Assembly: GCA_022340265.1 (NCBI GenBank)
Contig: JAJDOH010000082.1
Location: 24,186-88,185, forward strand
DNA: 64,000 bases
Origin: Deltaproteobacteria bacterium
Lineage (GTDB): Bacteria > Desulfobacterota > DSM-4660 > Desulfatiglandales > Desulfatiglandaceae
Reading direction: 5' to 3'
Under the pieces are notes generated by a model. It ran no database searches and was not told where the DNA came from. It saw only the letters and a list, made by a program, of their open reading frames with translations. Below are positions 3,241 through 45,341 of the stretch, one piece after another (position 1 is the first letter of the stretch; the number at the start of each line of letters is the position of its first letter). The translations under genes and the position numbers were made by a program.

Positions 3241-4305
<1,065 letters not shown>

Positions 4306-4441
4306 AATCTCTTTTTCTCCTTTGGCCTTTCATTGCCGTGCCCTTGATTTGGGCTTTGGCTTCCGTAATTGTTAACAAACGCACCAAATTTGTATCAAAC
4401 CGTCCTTTGGCGGTCGCGATTTATGGGGGCGGGATTAGCCA

Positions 4442-5296
4442 TTGAAGCGTGAAAAACGTTTTCCGAAAATCTGGATCTGGCTGGCCTTTATCTGTTTTGC
4501 ACTGTTTTTGCTTTCCTCGAATGCCAGTCAGCGCGGTGGTTGGAATCAGGCGGAGCAACTGGTCGTTGAGGGTGCAACACCGGTTCAGAGCTTTTTCAAG
4601 CAGACCGTGAACATGCTGCTGGGCCTGTGGGAGGACTATTTCTATCTGGTTGATGTTCGCCAGGAAAACCGGCGTTTGAAACTGGAATTGGATTCTCTTA
4701 AACGGGAAAATGGGCTTTACAGGGAAATGGTGACCACTCAGAAACGCCTGACCGATCTCCTGAAATTCAAAAACGCGGTTGGTCAGCCGGTCGTTGCTGC
4801 TCAGGTGGTAGGCCTGGATCCAACAGGGTGGTTCCAGTCTGTTGTCATCGACAAAGGGGCGACATCAGGCATTAGGCGGAACATGCCCGTGGTGAATTCT
4901 TCAGGTGTCGTGGGCCGAATCGTCTCGGTCTCTCCAAATTATGCCAAGGTTCTGTTGATTGTCGATCAGAACAGCGCAGTTGACTGCCTTGTGCAGCGCT
5001 CACGCGATCGGGGAATGGTCAGGGGGCTGTCAGCCCAGATTTGTCGATTGGACTACATGGTTAAATCCGGCGACGCGAAAGAAGGGGATGTGGTTATCAC
5101 ATCGGGTCTGGGACAGGTATTCCCAAAAGGTCTTCCCATCGGAACCATCTCGAACGTAAAAGAGGGGGAAGGGACCCTTTTCAAGGACATTGAAGTGACA
5201 CCTGCGGTGGATTTTTCCAAACTGGAAGAAGTTCTGGTTATGTTGCGGGCATCCAGCGAAGAACAAGAAAACCTGTCAGCGCATTCAATAAATTGA
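4442..5296 (+). CDS. mreC: Rod shape-determining protein MreC
   Basis: Bitopic periplasmic protein that links MreB to PBP2 and RodA. The 284-residue product shows an N-terminal membrane segment (about 10-27, IWIWLAFICFALFLL), a coiled coil (about 60-100) and the MreC beta-barrel region containing GLDPTGWFQSVVIDKG and VNSSGVVGRIV. The start must be the TTG at 4442, since an in-frame TAG lies only two codons upstream. The 136-bp gap behind mreB contains no convincing promoter or terminator, so read-through from mreB is likely. Confidence 0.95.
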   Translation: MKREKRFPKIWIWLAFICFALFLLSSNASQRGGWNQAEQLVVEGATPVQSFFKQTVNMLLGLWEDYFYLVDVRQENRRLKLELDSLKRENGLYREMVTTQKRLTDLLKFKNAVGQPVVAAQVVGLDPTGWFQSVVIDKGATSGIRRNMPVVNSSGVVGRIVSVSPNYAKVLLIVDQNSAVDCLVQRSRDRGMVRGLSAQICRLDYMVKSGDAKEGDVVITSGLGQVFPKGLPIGTISNVKEGEGTLFKDIEVTPAVDFSKLEEVLVMLRASSEEQENLSAHSIN

Positions 5297-5372
5297 GCAG
5301 GTTCGGTAACATTACGGAAATAGCGAGGACAGCGCCGTTAAAGCTTCAGGAAACAGGCCGATAGGCTTTTAC

Positions 5373-5879
5373 GTGTGGGCATGGGTGGGCGGAGGCATTG
5401 CAACCCTCCTGACCGGTATCTGGAGTGATCCGTGGGGTCTGGACTTTTTTGACCTGGATTTTCTGACGATTCTGACGGCATATCTGTTTATGGCGTTCGG
5501 CCAGATGGGGGCGGGCGTTTTCGCTCTGGGGCAGGGTTTTTTGATTGACGTGTTTTCAGGTGGGTTGCATGGTCTGTTTTCCGCCGCCTGCATCAGCGTT
5601 TTTTTCGTGATCCTTGTGGGATCCCGGTTCTTTAATCTTCTGAACCCAAAAGGGCAAATTATTATTGTCTCTGTTTCGGTTTTGCTGAAAAACGCCATGT
5701 TGTTGGTTCTTCTTCGTATTTTTTCACAGGATGTCCTTTACTCAAAAACATTTCTGCTGGAATCCCTTTTCTCCATAGGTATTACCGGGTTGTCCGCACC
5801 GCTTTTTTTTCAATTGTTCAACCACCTGCGCGGTGTTTCAGACAGGATGAGCAAAGGGGCTTCGCCGGATGAGAGTTGA
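5373..5879 (+). CDS. mreD: Rod shape-determining protein MreD
   Basis: Small polytopic membrane protein of the elongasome. The 168 residues form about five hydrophobic segments, and position between mreC and mrdA makes the assignment; sequence identity across the family is always low. The start is the least certain part: GTG at 5373 is the first usable codon, although the frame remains open upstream to about 5310 without ATG, GTG or TTG. The C-terminus (RGVSDRMSKGASPDES) is hydrophilic and likely cytoplasmic. Confidence 0.82.
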   Translation: MWAWVGGGIATLLTGIWSDPWGLDFFDLDFLTILTAYLFMAFGQMGAGVFALGQGFLIDVFSGGLHGLFSAACISVFFVILVGSRFFNLLNPKGQIIIVSVSVLLKNAMLLVLLRIFSQDVLYSKTFLLESLFSIGITGLSAPLFFQLFNHLRGVSDRMSKGASPDES

Positions 5880-5977
5880 GTGTTTGTGAGATTTTCTTTA
5901 ACAGGTAATGCTTCAATTCCCCCATGACATTTAGGTTTGAAGCTTTTAAAAGCATGAAAGCACAAGGGTAAAACACC

Positions 5978-7813
5978 TTGAAGTCATCAACTTTCGATCC
6001 TGTTACGCAGGATCTTTTTGAAAAACAGCTGAAAATTGCCATGGTGTTTGTTCTGGTGATTTTTGGCGTCATTTTCCTCAGACTGTGGTTTCTGCAGATC
6101 GTAAACGGATCCTTCTACCGGGACAAGAGTGAAAACAACCGAATACGGCTTGAAAGCATGCCGTCTTTCAGGGGGGTTATTCGGGACCGCAGCGGAAAAA
6201 TCCTGGTGGATAATCGACCCTCTTATGATCTTTGTGTTATTCCGGAGGAAATTCACGATACCGAAACGCTGCTGACTGGGCTGGCTGCTCTGGGCGATTT
6301 TGATATGACGTCCATGAAAGCAAAAATCAGGCAAGCGGCCAGTGGATACCCTTTCAAACCTGTCTGCCTGAAAAAGGATATTTCCCGTGATGAGCTGGCC
6401 ATGCTTGAAACGCGTCGATTCGATCTGCCGGGTGTCATGATTACAGTGAGGCCGCAACGAACCTATTTTTACGGCGATCTGGCGGCGCATGTGCTGGGAT
6501 ATCTGGGTGAGATCAGTGAGAAGCAACTAAAAAGCGGCGCATTTTCCGATACGAGGTCCGGCGACCTGATTGGTAAGACGGGAATGGAGAGAAAATGGCA
6601 GAAGTCGCTTAAAGGCGGGCGCGGCGGGGAGCAGGTAGAGGTTGATGCGGCAGGTCGAAGGATTAAAGTGATATCTCGAAGCTCGCCCATTTCAGGGGCG
6701 GATGTCTGTCTGACCATCGATCGGGAGTTGCAGATGCTGGCCGAAAGAGCCTTGGATGGAAAGCATGGGGCTGTGGTGGCCATGGACCCGCGTAACGGGC
6801 AGATTCTGGCCCTGGCAAGCAGCCCTTCTTTTGATCCCAACCTGTTCATTACGGGCTTCGATGAGGAAACCTGGAAGAACATGGTGTCATCCGGTGATCA
6901 TCCGCTGAATAACCGGGCCCTTACCGGGCAATACCCTCCCGGAAGTATTTTTAAGATCGTTGTAGCACTGGCCGGTCTTCAGGAAGGGGTGATCACGCCT
7001 GATGAAACGGTGTTCTGCAATGGTGAATATTCACTTGGCAGAGGGAAATACCGCTGCTGGAAACGGTGGGGGCACGGAAAGGTAGATTTGAATCGAGCAC
7101 TGGTGGAATCGTGTGATATCTACTTTTATCATCTGGGCATGCGACTTGGTGTCGATAGGATTGCCCGCTACGCACACCAACTGGGGCTGGGGCAAAAAAC
7201 CGGCCTGGATCTGGGAAATGAAAAAGCGGGTCTCATACCCTCAACCCAATGGAAGAAGAAACGGTGGGGCGTCCCCTGGCAGGGGGGAGAAACCGTTTCC
7301 ACCGCTATCGGTCAGAGTTTTGTGCTGGTGACCCCACTGCAGATCGCCACTTTTGCATCGGCGGTTTTTAACGGGGGGCACGTTTACAGACCCCAGTTGA
7401 CCCAATGGGTTCGAAAACCGGGCGGTGAGAACATTTTTGAATTTAAGCCCCAACTGGTCAGGGATGTGGGGATCAAGCCGAAATATCTGGAACTGGTAAG
7501 GAAAGCCCTTTCGGGTGCCGTTAACAATCCACGGGGCACCGGGACCAAAGCAAAACTGCCTGATATTACGGTGGCCGGGAAAACCGGTACCGCGCAGGTG
7601 GTGAATCTCAAAAAGGAAAAAAATGCGAAAGCAAAAGGTGAAATTCCCTGGAAGTACCGGGATCATGCCTGGTTTGTTGCGGTGGCCCCGGCCGATGCCC
7701 CCAGGATCACGGTGTCCGTTCTCATTGAGCACGGCGGGCACGGTGGAAGCGCCGCCGCCCCCATTGCCAAAAAGCTCATTGAGGCCTACCTTCGCGTACC
7801 CGTTGATTCATAA
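5978..7813 (+). CDS. mrdA: Penicillin-binding protein 2 (peptidoglycan transpeptidase)
   Basis: Class B PBP that cross-links glycan strands during side-wall growth. The 611-residue product has an N-terminal anchor (about 20-42), a PBP dimerisation region and a transpeptidase domain with the three active-site motifs: serine motif S323-I-F-K326, S378-C-D380 in the position of SxN (the SxD form is usual in PBP2), and K535-T-G-T538. The TTG start at 5978 has an AAGGG site upstream. It is followed by rodA, its glycosyltransferase partner, about 70 nt downstream. Confidence 0.96.
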   Translation: MKSSTFDPVTQDLFEKQLKIAMVFVLVIFGVIFLRLWFLQIVNGSFYRDKSENNRIRLESMPSFRGVIRDRSGKILVDNRPSYDLCVIPEEIHDTETLLTGLAALGDFDMTSMKAKIRQAASGYPFKPVCLKKDISRDELAMLETRRFDLPGVMITVRPQRTYFYGDLAAHVLGYLGEISEKQLKSGAFSDTRSGDLIGKTGMERKWQKSLKGGRGGEQVEVDAAGRRIKVISRSSPISGADVCLTIDRELQMLAERALDGKHGAVVAMDPRNGQILALASSPSFDPNLFITGFDEETWKNMVSSGDHPLNNRALTGQYPPGSIFKIVVALAGLQEGVITPDETVFCNGEYSLGRGKYRCWKRWGHGKVDLNRALVESCDIYFYHLGMRLGVDRIARYAHQLGLGQKTGLDLGNEKAGLIPSTQWKKKRWGVPWQGGETVSTAIGQSFVLVTPLQIATFASAVFNGGHVYRPQLTQWVRKPGGENIFEFKPQLVRDVGIKPKYLELVRKALSGAVNNPRGTGTKAKLPDITVAGKTGTAQVVNLKKEKNAKAKGEIPWKYRDHAWFVAVAPADAPRITVSVLIEHGGHGGSAAAPIAKKLIEAYLRVPVDS

Positions 7814-39308: not shown

Positions 39309-40799
39309 TTACCAATCGTAGAGGATCTCCCAATAACGATCAAAGTAAGGATCAGTCTGGCTGTAGCGAAAGGATATGGTCTTGCCGGTTCCGAGCCCAT
39401 TGCTCGTGTCTTCCTTCCAGTACCTCAGCAATATGGCGGGAATGAGTTGCGCGGTTTCCTTTCCCTTCTCTTTAATACGCTTTTCCGGAACTTGGATCCA
39501 GGTTTCCTGCTCCTCGATCACTTTCCATATGGTATCGAACTGCTTGCTCCTGACCCGCTCTCCCACCCGCGGGAGGGCAAGGCTCTCCCTGAGTTCTTTG
39601 AACCTGTAAGAAGACTGTTCCCCCCGGTCCAGTATTCTGTTGCCGAGGATCATGATGCCGATTGCGCCGATAGGGGCGGTGATCAGTATGGAAAGTACGG
39701 CCAAGGCCAGAATGACTTCCCCCGAGGCCACCCCCGCGGCCAGAGGCACTGCTCCGATGGCGGCCTGGACGGTCGCTTTGGGGATATAGGCCACCACACA
39801 AAAAAGCTTCTCTTTTCTGTTCAGGTCCGTTCCCATGAGAGAGATATACGTGCCGACGCTTCTGAACAGGAGACCGACCGCGATAACGAGCGTACCCGCC
39901 AGCCCTGCTTTCCAGGCGACGTGGATATTGACCTGGGCACCCACGAGAACAAAGAGGAGGAGTTCGGCAAACACCCAGAGCTTTTTGAGTTTCTGCGAGA
40001 TAATGTGGGCAACGGCTTCGGATTTTTCCAAAATCACGAATCCGATGGCCATCACGCCCAGTAGACTTGCAATGGGAACGATATCCTTTAGGGAGCTCTC
40101 CAACCACGTAAGAAAGATGGCCACTCCCATGACGACGATGGTCCTTTTTGGGGGACGCCAGTCGTATTTCATGTACAGGCGATAGAGAAAGTAGCCTGGA
40201 ATCAGACCCACAATGATTCCCAAAACGATGCTCACGGGAATCTCAGCGATTTTCATCCAAATATTGACCTCTCCACCACCGTACATGCCGAGAAAAATGG
40301 TAAAGAGCACGATTACGAAGACATCATCGACACTGGAGGCCCCGAGGATGAGGGTTGGGATACCCTTTTTCGCACCCCGGCCCCTATCCATGAAATCGAT
40401 CATGAGGGGAACTACCACGGCAGGAGAAACAGCACCCAGGATGGACCCCAGGATAGCAGCTTCCAGATATGTAATCCCCAGTAGCCGTGGCGCCACCAGC
40501 ACGATGCCCGCAATTTCGAAGATTGCCGGCACGGCACTCATGGTCAATGCGGCCCTTCCGACCTGATTGAGGGTGTCCCGGCGCAGTTCAAAGCCGGCTC
40601 GAAGCAGGATCACGATAAGGGCTATTTTGCGGAAGTCTCCGGAAACGGTCATCATCCCGGGGGATATGAGATTCAGCACGTAGGGCCCGATGAGAATCCC
40701 CACAAGCAACATCCCCACCAGACCCGGCAGTTTCATTCGGCGAAAAAGGTAATCACCCAGTAATCCAAAAAGAATGATAAAGGCGACACTTATTGCCAT
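39309..40799 (-). CDS. Cation:proton antiporter under a fluoride riboswitch
   Basis: A 496-residue CPA-family antiporter with about 12-13 membrane segments and a C-terminal cytoplasmic tail of ~90 residues. The ion-binding helix has GASSVDDVFVIVLF with an Asp-Asp pair, like CPA2-type electrogenic antiporters. The ATG at 40799 follows a GGAGG site; a longer frame from 40868 runs through the leader and is rejected. A fluoride riboswitch (40922-40974) and a terminator (40815-40850) lie in its leader. Antiporters of this type recur with such riboswitches, so a role in fluoride resistance is a solid inference; the transported ion is not shown. Confidence 0.9.
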   Translation of the reverse strand: MAISVAFIILFGLLGDYLFRRMKLPGLVGMLLVGILIGPYVLNLISPGMMTVSGDFRKIALIVILLRAGFELRRDTLNQVGRAALTMSAVPAIFEIAGIVLVAPRLLGITYLEAAILGSILGAVSPAVVVPLMIDFMDRGRGAKKGIPTLILGASSVDDVFVIVLFTIFLGMYGGGEVNIWMKIAEIPVSIVLGIIVGLIPGYFLYRLYMKYDWRPPKRTIVVMGVAIFLTWLESSLKDIVPIASLLGVMAIGFVILEKSEAVAHIISQKLKKLWVFAELLLFVLVGAQVNIHVAWKAGLAGTLVIAVGLLFRSVGTYISLMGTDLNRKEKLFCVVAYIPKATVQAAIGAVPLAAGVASGEVILALAVLSILITAPIGAIGIMILGNRILDRGEQSSYRFKELRESLALPRVGERVRSKQFDTIWKVIEEQETWIQVPEKRIKEKGKETAQLIPAILLRYWKEDTSNGLGTGKTISFRYSQTDPYFDRYWEILYDW

Positions 40800-40814
40800 G
40801 AGAAGACCTCCAAT

Positions 40815-40850
40815 AAAAAATGCCCTGCCGGTAGGTGAACCTGCAGAGCA
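40815..40850 (-). terminator. Intrinsic terminator in the antiporter leader
   Basis: On the minus strand TGCTCTGCAGGT pairs with ACCGGCAGGGCA across a short loop (one G-U and one mismatch) and is followed by six T residues, then by the GGAGG of the antiporter. A terminator at this point, between aptamer and start, is the expected output stage of a transcription-attenuating riboswitch. Confidence 0.8.
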
Positions 40851-40921
40851 TTCAAATAAGAATCCCACCGAAAGTTGAGGTGGGGTAGGTATTATACACT
40901 CCTACCCCAATGCGATTTTGG

Positions 40922-40974
40922 GGTAGAAGTCATCATCCCCTTGATGAGGGCGGTTTATGGCAGACTTCATTGCC
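40922..40974 (-). promoter_or_regulatory. Fluoride riboswitch (crcB motif) aptamer
   Basis: Read on the minus strand the 5' GGCA (40974-40971) pairs with TGCC (40962-40959) as P1. The enclosed GAAGTC (40968-40963) pairs with the 3' GACTTC (40931-40926) as the pseudoknot. ATAAAC follows P1, then a CCCT/AGGG hairpin with the GATGATG segment and the TCTACC end. Order and conserved bases match the known fluoride aptamer very closely. Fluoride riboswitches switch expression on, usually for fluoride exporters, and the downstream antiporter fits. The promoter for it is at 40991-41019. Confidence 0.9.
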
Positions 40975-40990
40975 GAGTCAATTGTCGAAG

Positions 40991-41019
40991 TTTTTACACC
41001 ACAGGAGGCATGTTGTCAA
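40991..41019 (-). promoter_or_regulatory. Sigma70-type promoter of riboswitch-antiporter transcript
   Basis: Minus-strand TTGACA (41019-41014), a 17-bp spacer and TAAAAA (40996-40991). The predicted start lies about 7 nt below, some 10 nt before the 5' end of the aptamer, the spacing needed for a riboswitch leader. Nothing else in the leader looks like a promoter. Confidence 0.65.
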
Positions 41020-41594: not shown

Positions 41595-43475
41595 TTAAAC
41601 ATCCAAAGCGGCCAGTCCCAAAGCCTTACGCTTTCCTTCAATGTGCCTGCGAATGATCAAAGCCGCTTTTTCCGGGTCCGGTTCCACGGCAAAGGTCGCA
41701 CCGACCACGTCTTTCAGCCCGTCAGTCAGGAGCTTGACCACGTTCATGCTGCCGGCAATGGGCGGCATGGGGCCCAGGACGGTTGTAACGCCGGATGCCA
41801 CAAAATAAGTTCCGATGGTAACCGCTTTTTCAGAGTACCATTCGGGGGCGGCGCCCGCAACGGGGAGATCGCTGATATCCACCCCCAAGGCATCGGCCAG
41901 GGCGGAAACCAGCACCAGGATGCGCACGTTGTCCACGCAGCTTCCCAGATGCAGCACCGGCGGGATCCCCAATGCGCCGCACACCTCCTTGAGACCCGGG
42001 CCCGCCATCTCAATAGCTTCAGGCACTTTGAATCCGGCTTTGGCGTTGGCCACGGAGACGCAACCCGTATCCACCACCAGCACATCGTTTTCAATCAGTC
42101 TCTTGGTGAGGGTTACATGGCCGTAATCCTGTTTGATCTTTGGGTTGTTGCATCCCACGATACCGACAGCCCCGCGAATTTTGCCGGCCTTGATCGCGTC
42201 CAGGAGCGGGTCGGCCGTGCCGCCCAGGGCACCGATAATGGTTTCTACGGAAAATCCCCCAATGGCGTTCACCGGCTCGACCGGAATGTAGGTTCGACCA
42301 CGGTGGGTGAAATTACTGACGGCCTCTTTTACCAGTTCCATGGCCATTTTTTCGGCGGTATCCGGATGAAATTCCCGGTGCTCCATTCCCGGGAATCTCG
42401 CTTTGTCGCTGGTGCTGATCATCTTCGTATGGTAACAGGCGGCCACCGTGCCCAAAGACGGCATAATGCACTGGTAGTCCACCAGCATCATTTCCACGGC
42501 CCCGGTGCTGAGAACCAGTTCCGTCATCAGATGATTGCCCGCCATGGGCACCCCATGACGCATGAGCAATTCGTTGCCGGTACAGCAGACGCCTGACAGA
42601 CTGATTCCGTTGGCCCCTTTTTCTTTGGCAAATGCCAGAAGTTCCGGCGATTCGCAGGCTTTCAGGATCATTTCCGAAACCACCGGGTTGTGGCCATGGA
42701 CAATGATGTTCACCTGGTCTTCCTTTAAAACGCCCACGTTCACCGTGGTCGGTTTGGGAGCGGGGATGCCGAAGAGGATATCCGATACTTCGGTCGCGAT
42801 CATGGATCCGCCCCAGCCGTCGGAGAGGGCATTGCGAAGGGCTTGCAGTAACAGGCTCTGCCAGCCGTTGTCCACCCCCATGTGGGTTCGGTGCAGCATT
42901 TCAGAGGTCTCGCGATCTATCCCGCGTGGGGTGATTCCGATCTTTTGCCAGAGCTCCCGGCGTTTTTGAGGCGCCCTGTCCACCAGTCTGATTTGCTTTT
43001 GGCGCATGCCGTAGTCTTCCATCATGGCCTGGGCCAATTCTCCCGCCAACGGCAGCGGGTCTTTCCCTTCGGTTTCAATGCCGTACTCGGCGGCCACCCT
43101 TTGAAGCTTTTCAACGCTCCGAATCCGGTACCCGGGCGCCGTGCCCTCGGAGACGCCTGCCAGCACTTCCACCAGATCACGGCCGTGGTCTGAATGGGAA
43201 GAAGCCCCCGCGGCCACCATGCGGCACAGGTTCCGGGCCACGATAATATCCGCATCGGCGCCGCAGACCCCTTTCTGCGGACCTTCCCCGAAAGGATCCA
43301 CGCGGCAGGGTCCCATGACGCAGATGCGGCAGCTCAATCCCAGATCACAGTATCCGCATTGGGGCTGCTGAGCCTGATGCCTTTCCCAAACCGTTTCCAC
43401 CTGATCTTTCTCTGCCTTTGCAAGAAGTAGTTGGCCGTCTTTCGTAATGGTGAGATCTTCAAATTTCTGATTCAT
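41595..43475 (-). CDS. cooS: Anaerobic carbon-monoxide dehydrogenase catalytic subunit
   Basis: Ni-Fe-S enzyme oxidising CO to CO2 (or the reverse) in the cytoplasm. The 626-residue product is normal CooS length. Near the N-terminus the B/D cluster cysteines appear in CGYCDLGLSCRICVMGPC; C-cluster ligands appear as HGHNPVVSE, VCCTGNE, GCNNPK and GSCVDN. It is transcribed with a CooF-like ferredoxin (30 nt upstream) and a flavoprotein. No acetyl-CoA synthase, CooC-type Ni chaperone or CooA regulator is in the window, so this is a monofunctional CODH. Confidence 0.97.
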   Translation of the reverse strand: MNQKFEDLTITKDGQLLLAKAEKDQVETVWERHQAQQPQCGYCDLGLSCRICVMGPCRVDPFGEGPQKGVCGADADIIVARNLCRMVAAGASSHSDHGRDLVEVLAGVSEGTAPGYRIRSVEKLQRVAAEYGIETEGKDPLPLAGELAQAMMEDYGMRQKQIRLVDRAPQKRRELWQKIGITPRGIDRETSEMLHRTHMGVDNGWQSLLLQALRNALSDGWGGSMIATEVSDILFGIPAPKPTTVNVGVLKEDQVNIIVHGHNPVVSEMILKACESPELLAFAKEKGANGISLSGVCCTGNELLMRHGVPMAGNHLMTELVLSTGAVEMMLVDYQCIMPSLGTVAACYHTKMISTSDKARFPGMEHREFHPDTAEKMAMELVKEAVSNFTHRGRTYIPVEPVNAIGGFSVETIIGALGGTADPLLDAIKAGKIRGAVGIVGCNNPKIKQDYGHVTLTKRLIENDVLVVDTGCVSVANAKAGFKVPEAIEMAGPGLKEVCGALGIPPVLHLGSCVDNVRILVLVSALADALGVDISDLPVAGAAPEWYSEKAVTIGTYFVASGVTTVLGPMPPIAGSMNVVKLLTDGLKDVVGATFAVEPDPEKAALIIRRHIEGKRKALGLAALDV

Positions 43476-43505
43476 CTTTCTCTCCTTATGATTGAAAGCG
43501 TCGCA

Positions 43506-44096
43506 TTAAAGGGACAGTTGTGCCCTTTTTGCAGCGGTTAGCAGTGAAAAAGCAGGGGACAGGGATATTTCTTCGGCCCCCCGGGAAACTGACCGGGCCA
43601 CTTCATCGGTCTTTCGTTTCATGGCATCGGTGCTTTCCTCAAAGGTCAACGCATTTGATTTACACACCTCCACACAGGCCGGAATGAGGCCTTCCATCTG
43701 CCTTTGGTCGCAGTTATCACATTTAACGGCAACGGTTTTTCCAAAGGGTGCCGTGGCGTCTTCGTGAAAACGAATCACACCATAGGGGCAGGCCATGGCA
43801 CAGCTGGCGCAATTGATGCACTTGTCCGGGTTAATCAGAACGGTCTCTTTTTCAGGATCGCGAAAGATGGCATTTGCCAGGCAGGCCGACATGCAGGGGG
43901 CCGGGTCACAGTGTCTGCACCGGTTGGGGAATCCTTCATTGTAAAGTCCCGCACCCACATGGACCCGTGATTTGGGAAGTGGCGTCTCCATGAGGGCCGT
44001 CAAGAGCTGACGGGTTTTGGAATGTGCCGTGGCACAGGTGATCATGCATTGCATGCACCCCACACATCTTTCGGGATGAACCATGACTTTTTTCAT
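43506..44096 (-). CDS. CooF-like 4Fe-4S ferredoxin
   Basis: A 196-residue polyferredoxin with four cluster motifs: CVGCMQCMITC, CRHCDPAPCMSAC, CINCASCAMACPYGVI and CDNCDQRQ followed by CVEVC. This is the DMSO reductase/hydrogenase small-subunit type that CooF belongs to. Electron acceptor of CooS is the clear contextual role. It lies 15 nt below the flavoprotein gene and above cooS. Confidence 0.92.
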   Translation of the reverse strand: MKKVMVHPERCVGCMQCMITCATAHSKTRQLLTALMETPLPKSRVHVGAGLYNEGFPNRCRHCDPAPCMSACLANAIFRDPEKETVLINPDKCINCASCAMACPYGVIRFHEDATAPFGKTVAVKCDNCDQRQMEGLIPACVEVCKSNALTFEESTDAMKRKTDEVARSVSRGAEEISLSPAFSLLTAAKRAQLSL

Positions 44097-44111
44097 AGTG
44101 CCTCCTTTCTC

Positions 44112-45341
44112 TCAATTCATGAGCTGTCGAAAGTTAAACCCAGGTTCAAGCAGCTTCTTCTTGGATATGCCAATGGGTGTCTCATTTCGAATGAGTGCCA
44201 GCAGAAGTCCCCCCTGTTCAATGCGGCCCAGCAGAACGGCGCCCACCAGGACATTTTCGCGGAAGACCAGTTTTCGATAGCGGTTGTTTCTAAGATCGTG
44301 GGTGGAAAGCATCCGGCAATCGGAATCGGGTTCGGGGTTGGCCAGTCCAAGGGTCATGAGATCCAGGCCAAATATGCGCATAACATTACGGCTCACGCTG
44401 CCGGTATAAGAAATATTTCGTCCGGCCATGTTCATTCCGGCCGTGCGCCCCTGCATGGCGGCTTCCGGCCAGATGGCATTGACCCATCTCCTTTTCCTCG
44501 CAATATCCACGCACTCGGCCACGTCACCGGCAGCATAAACGCCTTTTAGTGAGGTCTCCAGGTATTCATCTACCCGTATCCCCTGTCCCATGGAAATGCT
44601 GTCCCGGGGTACAAAGGAAAGCGATGGCGCGACCCCTTTTCCGGCGATCACCAGATCGCAGGGAAGGGTGGAACCGTCTGAAAGCTGAGCGCCCATAACC
44701 GCTTCATTCCCCTCAAAAGCGATGACGCTGATGCCCACGCGGACCGTCAACCCGTTTCGAACCAGTTCATCCAGGATGACTTTTCCGGCGGTTCCATCCA
44801 CCTGAATGGAGAGGGGATAGGCGGATGTGATGAGCATGGTGGGTTTAAAACCTCTTTTGAGCAGTCCATAAGCCGCCTTAAATCCCACCAGACCGCCTCC
44901 CAGAACCAGGGGTTTCCGTGTATGGGGCAGTTTATCAACGATTTGCCGCACGTGGTCCCGGGTTCTCAGATAGTGGATATTTTTGAGATTCGCGTCCTTT
45001 GCCTCGACGGACCTTGCATCGGCGCCGGTTGCGATGAGAAGTCGATCGAAAGGGATTCTTTGCCGGTTTAGAAGCACGATTTCATGATCTGCAACGTCTA
45101 TCGCCGAAATGCGATTTCCAAAACGCGTTTCGATGTTGAGATCTTCGTAGACGCTTGGAACGCGTATGGGGAGCTTTTCAAATGGGATGGATCCGTCAAG
45201 AACCATGCTGATCATAGGCCGGCTGTAGGGAACAGCTTTTTCGTCACCGACCATGGTGACATGCCCTGAAGGATCCAATTGCCGAATGGCTTCGGCCGCG
45301 GAGATTCCCGCGATGCCGTTTCCTGCAATGACATATCGCAT
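44112..45341 (-). CDS. FAD-dependent pyridine nucleotide-disulfide oxidoreductase (CODH-associated)
   Basis: A 409-residue flavoprotein of the NADH:rubredoxin/nitrite-reductase-like type. It shows the FAD motif AGNGIAGISAAEAI at the N-terminus, the NAD motif LVLGGGLVGFKAAYG (about residue 150), and the second FAD motif EYLETSLKGVYAAGDVAECV (about residue 265). In many CODH operons this gene passes electrons from CooF to NAD(P). It is first in the operon. The 363-bp gap above contains the promoter at 45400-45428. Confidence 0.92.
   Translation of the reverse strand: MRYVIAGNGIAGISAAEAIRQLDPSGHVTMVGDEKAVPYSRPMISMVLDGSIPFEKLPIRVPSVYEDLNIETRFGNRISAIDVADHEIVLLNRQRIPFDRLLIATGADARSVEAKDANLKNIHYLRTRDHVRQIVDKLPHTRKPLVLGGGLVGFKAAYGLLKRGFKPTMLITSAYPLSIQVDGTAGKVILDELVRNGLTVRVGISVIAFEGNEAVMGAQLSDGSTLPCDLVIAGKGVAPSLSFVPRDSISMGQGIRVDEYLETSLKGVYAAGDVAECVDIARKRRWVNAIWPEAAMQGRTAGMNMAGRNISYTGSVSRNVMRIFGLDLMTLGLANPEPDSDCRMLSTHDLRNNRYRKLVFRENVLVGAVLLGRIEQGGLLLALIRNETPIGISKKKLLEPGFNFRQLMN

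What the first reader, a model, noticed from the sequence alone, without database searches (positions are those of the whole stretch)
40821..40931. Relay of alternative helices linking the fluoride aptamer to its terminator
On the minus-strand RNA the order is CUACCCCA (40926-40919, overlapping the aptamer 3' end), UGGGGUAG (40909-40902), CUACCCCACC (40888-40879), GGUGGG (40869-40864), and CCUACC (40835-40830) inside the terminator arm. Each segment can pair with the one before or after it. With fluoride, the first segment is held by the aptamer, so UGGGGUAG pairs with the second CUACCCCA, releasing GGUGGG to pair with CCUACC and break the terminator. Without fluoride the register flips. This is longer than the usual fluoride expression platform.
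Basis: inference. Interest (0 to 1): 0.8.

Follow-up and report, generated by a model that had tools for sequence, protein, structure and literature searches.

The report
Fluoride riboswitch controlling chained terminators
The leader of a bacterial ion-exchanger gene carries a fluoride-sensor sequence followed by a chain of overlapping RNA hairpins whose arms have changed in step across related bacteria, and this chain would likely let fluoride disable two successive transcription stop signals instead of the usual one.

Summary
In detail: all five segments lie where stated and form a chain of four overlapping helices after an Rfam fluoride aptamer; 1 of 1000 dinucleotide shuffles gives such a chain. 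Relatives change the picture: in most long leaders the middle hairpin is followed by its own U-tract, like a terminator (T1), so this is a tandem-terminator platform. The surprising last link, T1 3' arm with terminator T2 (helix D), is stronger for a leader's own arms than for swapped ones (29 leaders, -14.8 against -12.6 kcal/mol, 0 of 20000 permutations as good); the reciprocal control is null. Just before T2 is complete, the window folds as B+D with the aptamer strand locked and as A+T1 with it free. I read it as a relay: fluoride holds the aptamer, B blocks T1, and the freed arm delays T2; a leak past a folded T1 would still meet an active T2. Limits: the window's T1 U-tract is interrupted; its completed T2 outweighs D, so the block must be kinetic; 7 of 27 leaders form little D; nothing is tested experimentally. 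It is a new variant of a known kind.

The parts
40991..41019 (-). Promoter-like sequence: TTGACA 41019-41014, 17-nt spacer, TAAAAA 40996-40991 (predicted)
   Evidence: Read; a TTGAC box stands a short distance before the aptamer in 19 of the 20 leaders printed (window included; not in L025). The automatic scan did not list it.
40917..40983 (-). Fluoride riboswitch aptamer (RF01734)
   Evidence: cmscan 51 bits, E 3.3e-11, model positions 1-64 of 64
40898..40930 (-). Helix A: ACUUCUACCCCA 40930-40919 with UGGGGUAGGAGU 40909-40898; takes the aptamer's pseudoknot strand, mutually exclusive with the bound aptamer and with helix B
   Evidence: 93.0% of cells paired in 19 leaders; own stronger than swapped, z -4.2
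40881..40909 (-). Helix B (antiterminator of T1): UGGGGUAGG 40909-40901 with CCUACCCCA 40889-40881
   Evidence: G-C to A-U double change in 4 of 19 leaders at its last pair; swap test n=34 z -3.8
40864..40884 (-).
   Evidence: pair counts
40855..40863 (-). Interrupted U-tract after T1 (AUUCUUAUU, 6 U of 9)
40828..40871 (-). Helix D (antiterminator of T2): UCGGUGGG 40871-40864 with CCUACCGG 40835-40828
   Evidence: own-leader preference; pair counts
40815..40851 (-). Terminator T2: AUGCUCUGC 40851-40843 with GCAGGGCAU 40828-40820, apical GGU/ACC, U-tract 40820-40815
40807..40811 (-). Shine-Dalgarno GGAGG of the downstream gene
   Evidence: read
39309..40799 (-). Controlled gene: Na+/H+ exchanger family protein (PF00999), 496 aa from ATG 40799
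   Evidence: Pfam E 5.4e-48; an in-frame GTG at 40868 gives a 519-aa frame without a visible Shine-Dalgarno

Best explanation
The leader of this Na+/H+-exchanger gene has a fluoride-aptamer match followed by overlapping, mutually exclusive helices A, B, T1 and D and a terminator hairpin T2, and fluoride binding is predicted to pass a strand-exchange signal down this chain that likely disables both T1 and T2 and lets the gene be read. Predicted without fluoride: the G-rich strand GGGGUAGGAGU invades the aptamer (helix A), so it cannot block T1. T1 forms (terminator-like in most long leaders, weaker in the window), its 3' arm is occupied, and T2 forms: off. Predicted with fluoride: the pseudoknot strand is held, the G-rich strand pairs with the T1 5' arm instead (helix B), and T1 cannot form. 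The freed T1 3' arm captures the T2 loop and upper 3' arm (helix D) as they leave the polymerase, delaying T2 past its termination window: on. A polymerase that leaks past a folded T1 without fluoride would still meet an active T2, so T2 would be a back-up terminator that is armed only when the ligand is absent. Shown: the sequences, the competing pairings, their conservation and coordinated change. Inferred: fluoride binding, the direction of switching, termination at T1 and T2, and the kinetic block of T2 by D.
For: Aptamer. Chain length beyond chance in the window: 1 of 1000 shuffles. D: own T1 3' arm with T2 stronger than swapped arms, 27 leaders -15.23 vs -12.92 kcal/mol, z -5.5; with two leaders I had left out put back, 29 leaders, z -5.6, 0 of 20000. 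It holds for arm lengths 8 to 13 (each 0 of 20000), without the 5 top contributors (n=24, z -4.1), in 13 leaders thinned to an alignment score per base below 0.65 (1 of 20000), and with swaps only inside four sequence groups (z -4.2). T1's own two arms score z -5.3 in the same test. Null controls: reversed arm z -0.5, A' strand x T2 z 0.1, preceding 25 nt x T2 z 0.3; reciprocal T1 5' arm x T2 z +0.5, which argues against simple hairpin duplication. Pair counts in 19 leaders: D 84.9% of cells paired, shuffles 79.0%, 0 of 500 as high; covariation score 0.260 vs 0.149, 0 of 500; 9 double-change cells, 1 of 500. B 97.4% paired (9 of 500 shuffles as high), last pair G-C in 13 and A-U in 4, 2 of 500 for double-change cells; B swap test z -3.0 with 27 leaders, z -3.8 with 34. 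Six or more U in the first 9 bases after T1 in 24 of 27 and after T2 in 25 of 27. Partition function with T2 short of its last 5 nt, mean pairs over 27: aptamer strand locked B 8.1, T1 3.0, D 6.8, T2 1.7; free A 9.8, T1 5.9, D 3.6, T2 2.95. Window: locked B 9.9, D 7.3, T1 0.5; free A 12.9, T1 6.0, D 1.7.
Against: With T2 complete, the window's locked state favours T2 (9.9 pairs) over D (1.8), so D can only act kinetically there. A pseudoknot with D and the lower T2 stem together is not excluded. At the cut of 5 nt, D has 4 or more pairs in 20 of 27 locked leaders but also in 9 of 27 free ones (L005, L009, L010, L012, L067, L068, L090, L091b, L095), and 7 of 27 locked leaders stay below 4 (L008, L019, L034, L049, L057, L081, L105). 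Of the 9 leaders whose folds are printed, L020 shows a different hairpin in place of the usual D, L018 only part of it, and L009 and L091b show D in the free state too. Nearest-relative swaps favour the own pairing in only 18 of 27 (Wilcoxon p 0.016). One group of five leaders shows no effect (p 0.30) and the reversed-T2 control is borderline (p 0.06). In the pair counts the number of pairs with a change on both sides is not exceptional: D 3, 66 of 500 shuffles as high; B 1, 335 of 500. L017 has no useful D (-5.6). T1 lacks a good U-tract in L057, L023 and L025, and the window's is interrupted. I know of no transcription data for any member.
Confidence: 0.66

Rival explanations
1. A three-helix fluoride switch (A, B, T1) followed by an uncoupled second terminator: T2 is a constitutive attenuator that lowers expression in both states, as reported for the c-di-GMP riboswitch Bc1, and the D complementarity is incidental.
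For: Leaders with A, B and T1 but no second U-tract hairpin exist by my reading (L069-L071, L085, L078, L093), so that unit seems viable by itself; in the window T2 is the stable fold in both states once complete. Bc1 is an uncoupled dual terminator in nature (PMC11218506, abstract and passages).
Against: The T1 3' arm and T2 match each other as specifically as the two arms of T1 do, with double base changes, and the reciprocal control is null. An uncoupled T2 needs no such match.
Confidence: 0.2
2. The usual fluoride mechanism only: helix A is the functional terminator overlapping the aptamer and everything downstream is unrelated.
For: A is strong and overlaps the pseudoknot strand, as in known fluoride switches (PMC11077080 passages); in L077, L098 and L004 helix A is followed by a U-run.
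Against: In the window A is followed by GUAUAAUACC, and in the 19 leaders of A4 by no U-run; B, T1 and D are conserved.
Confidence: 0.04
3. D or the T2 region acts at translation: T2 lies a few bases before the Shine-Dalgarno, and the switch controls initiation rather than termination.
For: The U-tract ends 3 nt before GGAGG at 40811-40807.
Against: T2 is followed by 6 or more U in 9 bases in 25 of 27 members; in the MFE GAGG pairs only in a 4-bp long-range helix with aptamer bases; in L008 the frame found starts well beyond T2, and in L034 the likely start is also about 50 nt beyond it by eye.
Confidence: 0.06

Closest known systems
Transcriptional fluoride (crcB) riboswitches of Bacillus cereus and Thermotoga petrophila
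   Same: Aptamer family RF01734; a downstream strand (P4, here helix A) competes for the pseudoknot strand; ligand expected to favour read-through (PMC11077080 passages; PMC13273304 abstract, passages and sections 29 and 33).
   Different: There the invading stem is the single terminator. Here A has no U-run and starts a chain A-B-T1-D-T2 with two terminator-like hairpins. The 2026 survey of 1901 fluoride riboswitches models the aptamer-overlapping terminator (it also mentions functional variants reaching through P3), and its main text has no occurrence of 'tandem', 'second terminator' or 'antiterminator'.
c-di-GMP-I riboswitch Bc1 of Bacillus thuringiensis (dual terminator)
   Same: One aptamer followed by two intrinsic terminators in one expression platform (PMC11218506, abstract and passages).
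   Different: In Bc1 T2 stays almost intact when T1 unfolds and masks the response. Here the T1 3' arm is complementary to T2, which is predicted to couple the two.
rimP-leader of Gammaproteobacteria
   Same: Two tandem terminators with a potential antiterminator at the upstream one (PMC2965389, passage).
   Different: The passage names no small-molecule aptamer and reports no pairing that couples the second terminator to the first.
Classical trp attenuator (recalled, no call)
   Same: Relay of mutually exclusive neighbouring segments 1:2, 2:3, 3:4.
   Different: The input is ribosome position and there is one terminator; here the relay is longer, the input is an ion aptamer, and two terminators are addressed.

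Membership tests
Fluoride riboswitch (RF01734) | Aptamer sequence and structure above gathering score | tested here: met
   51 bits vs 34, full length
Fluoride riboswitch (RF01734) | Pseudoknot between the P2 loop and the 3' strand | tested here: met
   GAAGUC in the P2 loop and GACUUC in the 3' strand are complementary in the window sequence; by sequence only
Fluoride riboswitch (RF01734) | Gene plausibly linked to fluoride or ion toxicity | tested here: met
   Na+/H+ exchanger PF00999; enolase in L011. That such genes are typical is recalled
Fluoride riboswitch (RF01734) | Fluoride binding and fluoride-dependent expression | not testable with these tools
   needs biochemistry
Known transcriptional fluoride expression platform | The stem that overlaps the aptamer 3' strand is itself an intrinsic terminator | tested here: not met
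   helix A is followed by GUAUAAUACC, no U-run; met in L077, L098, L004
Dual-terminator expression platform (Bc1-like) | Two consecutive hairpins each with a U-tract | tested here: inconclusive
   24 and 25 of 27 long leaders; in the window T1 has 6 U of 9, interrupted
Dual-terminator expression platform (Bc1-like) | Second terminator independent of the ligand | tested here: inconclusive
   conserved T1 3' arm x T2 pairing argues against independence; not measured

The most novel reading that the evidence does not exclude
This is a riboswitch that drives two intrinsic terminators in series through a single strand-exchange relay: blocking the first terminator frees the very arm that disarms the second, so the second is a proofreading back-up that works only when the ligand is absent. 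Different bacterial families aim the freed arm at different parts of T2 (its loop and 3' arm, or its 5' arm) while keeping the coupling.
Probability: 0.6. Interest if true: 0.82.

Novelty: new variant of a known kind. Interest (0 to 1): 0.72.

Why it matters
Fluoride switches are a model for how a ligand signal is relayed to a terminator within the seconds of transcription, and that model has one competing stem. A leader with a conserved five-helix relay would show how riboswitches can lower their leak: two terminators in series that multiply their stringency without losing the response, which an uncoupled pair (Bc1) does lose. It gives a natural series of leaders (A as terminator; A-B-T1; A-B-T1-D-T2) for asking how expression platforms grow, and a ready template for low-leak synthetic switches.

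Tried and rejected
Duplication of T1 into T2 as the cause of D: rejected for the set as a whole, because T1 5' arm x T2 shows no own-leader preference (z +0.5). In L067 and L068 the two hairpins do resemble each other, and for those two duplication stays possible.

Composition or relatedness as the cause: reversed sequences, another G-rich strand and within-group swaps were used as controls. The within-group effect is absent in one group of five (p 0.30). Thinning to 13 divergent leaders keeps it. No tree-based null was run.

An upstream GTG start at 40868: no Shine-Dalgarno, seen in L001 and L015 among the rows; not pursued.

The class search held the same 85 genomes as the order search and added nothing. 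Searches around G096 and G104 gave no members beyond L066-L071.

Choice of rows: the 79 matches (from 73 loci; L029 gave none) were reduced by hand to 60 distinct leaders. Of these, 27 with two hairpins were typed for the D test; L017 and L092 had been left out and were added. The others lack a second U-tract hairpin after T1, or lack T1, by my reading. The A4 pair counts use 19 leaders, all above 100 bits; L001 sits one column out of register there for D and is counted as given.

Full report
What is there. On the minus strand the window has one Rfam match at gathering score, a full-length fluoride aptamer at 40983-40917. It is preceded by a promoter-like TTGACA-17-TAAAAA; a TTGAC box stands a short distance before the aptamer in 19 of the 20 leaders printed. 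The ATG of a 496-aa Na+/H+ exchanger family protein (40799) follows 117 nt after the aptamer match. In the 107 bases 40926-40820 they make a chain of four linked helices (A: 9 bp in this stretch and 13 pairs with the aptamer strand; B: 9 bp; middle hairpin: 6 bp; D: 8 bp), and the last one ends in the loop and upper 3' arm of a terminator (T2). Only 1 of 1000 dinucleotide shuffles gives a chain of four.

Relatives. A search of the window's own genome and 60 relatives found the aptamer in 24 of 61 genomes. I built a covariance model of aptamer, A, middle hairpin and T2 from 11 leaders. In the 85 genomes held for the order, 18 have a match at E 1e-15 or better, with scores of 82 bits and more, and the next match scores 59 bits. 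In a sample of 395 genomes of the phylum, which overlaps with the former, 14 reach that E-value, adding two more families. A pattern scan of named genomes for this aptamer subtype with a helix-A strand, relay or not, returned 34 records; 29 titles name Deltaproteobacteria, Thermodesulfobacteriota, Syntrophobacteraceae or Desulfo- taxa, including the isolates Desulfoferrobacter suflitae, Desulfacinum hydrothermale and Desulfacinum infernum; one is Methanoregula, one Neomarinimicrobiota and three name no taxon. The 60 distinct leaders fall, by my reading, into a series: helix A itself followed by a U-run (L004, L077, L098); A, B and one terminator (L069-L071, L085, L078, L093); the long form with two hairpins; and other simple or unclear forms. 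In 27 long leaders the middle hairpin has 6 or more U in the first 9 bases after it in 24, and T2 in 25. So the middle hairpin, T1, looks like a terminator in most of them.

Is the last link real? D, the pairing of the T1 3' arm with T2, is the claim that goes beyond known designs, so I tested it hardest. For 27 leaders the pairing energy of a leader's own T1 3' arm with its own T2 averages -15.2 kcal/mol, against -12.9 when arms are swapped among leaders (z -5.5). Adding the two leaders I had left out gives 29 leaders, -14.8 against -12.6, 0 of 20000 permutations as good. The effect is as large as for T1's own two arms (z -5.3). It remains for arm lengths 8 to 13, without the five strongest contributors, and in 13 leaders thinned by alignment score (1 of 20000). 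It also remains when swaps are allowed only within four sequence groups (z -4.2). Controls with a reversed T1 arm, the A' strand, or the 25 nt before T1 show nothing; reversed T2 is borderline (p 0.06). The T1 5' arm with T2, which a simple hairpin duplication would favour equally, shows nothing (z +0.5). Against it: comparing each leader with its nearest relative, the own pairing is better in 18 of 27 (p 0.016), and one group of five shows no effect (p 0.30).

Pair by pair, in 19 leaders (alignment A4, which was fitted to A, T1 and T2 but not to B or D), D pairs in 84.9% of cells against 79.0% after shuffling (0 of 500), with 9 double-change cells (1 of 500); slid registers drop to 23-56%. 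The number of D pairs with a change on both sides, 3, is reached by 66 of 500 shuffles. Examples: A-U, G-U, G-C and U-G at columns 187-236; U-A to C-G at columns 190-227 in L020 and L096. The window's own D is one base out of register there, although it forms 8 bp in its own register. B pairs in 97.4% of cells (9 of 500), and its last pair, which lies outside T1, is G-C in 13 and A-U in 4 of 19 leaders; it is the only B pair with double changes. In L005, L066, L067, L068, L090, L091b and L095, among others, the T1 3' arm pairs best with the 5' arm of T2 instead. I read this as the coupling being kept while its target moves.

Two states. I folded leaders with the aptamer's 3' strand left out (as if locked by fluoride) or present and free. 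For the window, with T2 short of its last 6 bases, the minimum-energy fold is B+D when locked and A+T1 (with the top of T2) when free. Of the nine leaders printed, L020 and L018 do not show the plain D when locked, and L009 and L091b show D when free as well. The partition function at a cut of 5 bases gives, for the window: locked B 9.9, D 7.3, T1 0.5 pairs; free A 12.9, T1 6.0, D 1.7 pairs. Over 27 leaders D has at least 4 pairs in 20 locked and 9 free. Once T2 is complete, the window prefers T2 in both states (9.9 pairs). D in the window therefore can only delay T2 while the polymerase crosses the U-tract. In 9 of 27 leaders (L005, L010, L018, L040, L066, L067, L068, L091b, L095) D still outweighs T2 at full length when locked; in L010 T2 itself is poor. 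The lower stem of T2 could also coexist with D as a pseudoknot; these tools cannot decide that.

Mechanism. Known: in fluoride switches the ligand protects the pseudoknot strand from an invading downstream strand (PMC11077080, passages). Inferred here: without fluoride A forms, T1 is free to form, its 3' arm is occupied and T2 forms. With fluoride B forms, T1 is blocked, and its 3' arm captures T2. The polarity would be right for a detoxification gene at every length of the series. The useful property would be that a polymerase slipping past a folded T1 without fluoride still meets an active T2, while a polymerase that passed because B formed meets a disabled one.

Comparison with print. The 2026 survey of 1901 fluoride riboswitches (PMC13273304; abstract, passages, sections 29 and 33 seen) models the aptamer-overlapping terminator. 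The c-di-GMP riboswitch Bc1 (PMC11218506; abstract and passages) has two terminators, but T2 stays almost intact and masks the response; its authors call a dual terminator in one platform rarely seen. A tandem terminator pair is noted in the rimP leader (PMC2965389; passage). The listings of the searches, judged by title and start of abstract, show no paper on a riboswitch whose first terminator arm controls its second terminator; most subscription papers are not in that library.

Verdict. The aptamer is an ordinary member of RF01734. The expression platform does not meet the defining feature of the known fluoride platform (overlapping stem as terminator) and is a new variant: a tandem-terminator relay. 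A-B-T1 is close to certain as a conserved structure. D is strongly supported as a conserved pairing, but its effect on T2 is inferred.

Noticed in passing
L012:1698-3071; by similar start also L005, L009, L010, L025, L040, L066-L071 downstream frames: The frame behind the relay riboswitch of L012 is a dynamin-family GTPase (PF00350), an unexpected partner for a fluoride switch; the other loci were judged only by eye from the start of the sequence after the leader.
   Followed up: partly
L011 / L027 (G053:C178:5447-5732): Two fluoride aptamers lie back to back on opposite strands about 150 bp apart: a relay type before enolase and a simple type (37 bits to the leader model) before a frame that was not scanned.
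   Followed up: no
L084 (Methanoregula sp. PtaB.Bin085 record) 3596-6842: Four matches to the leader model in about 3 kb of one archaeal contig, perhaps an array of fluoride-switched genes.
   Followed up: no
L034 and L049 (same genome G063): Two very similar relay leaders; in L049 the T2 3' arm and U-tract are degenerate and D is weak too.
   Followed up: partly
L002 1014-1097 (G000:C57): A second, sub-threshold fluoride-aptamer-like match (25.2 bits) in the window's genome with no frame of 100 aa starting in the 500 bases after it.
   Followed up: no
window 40868-40800: An in-frame GTG inside the T1 3' arm extends the exchanger frame through D and T2 (519 aa); L015 has the same extension. 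Probably chance.
   Followed up: partly
window 41595-45341: Upstream neighbours: a Prismane/CO dehydrogenase family protein, and by eye from the translations a ferredoxin-like protein and an NAD(P)/FAD oxidoreductase.
   Followed up: no
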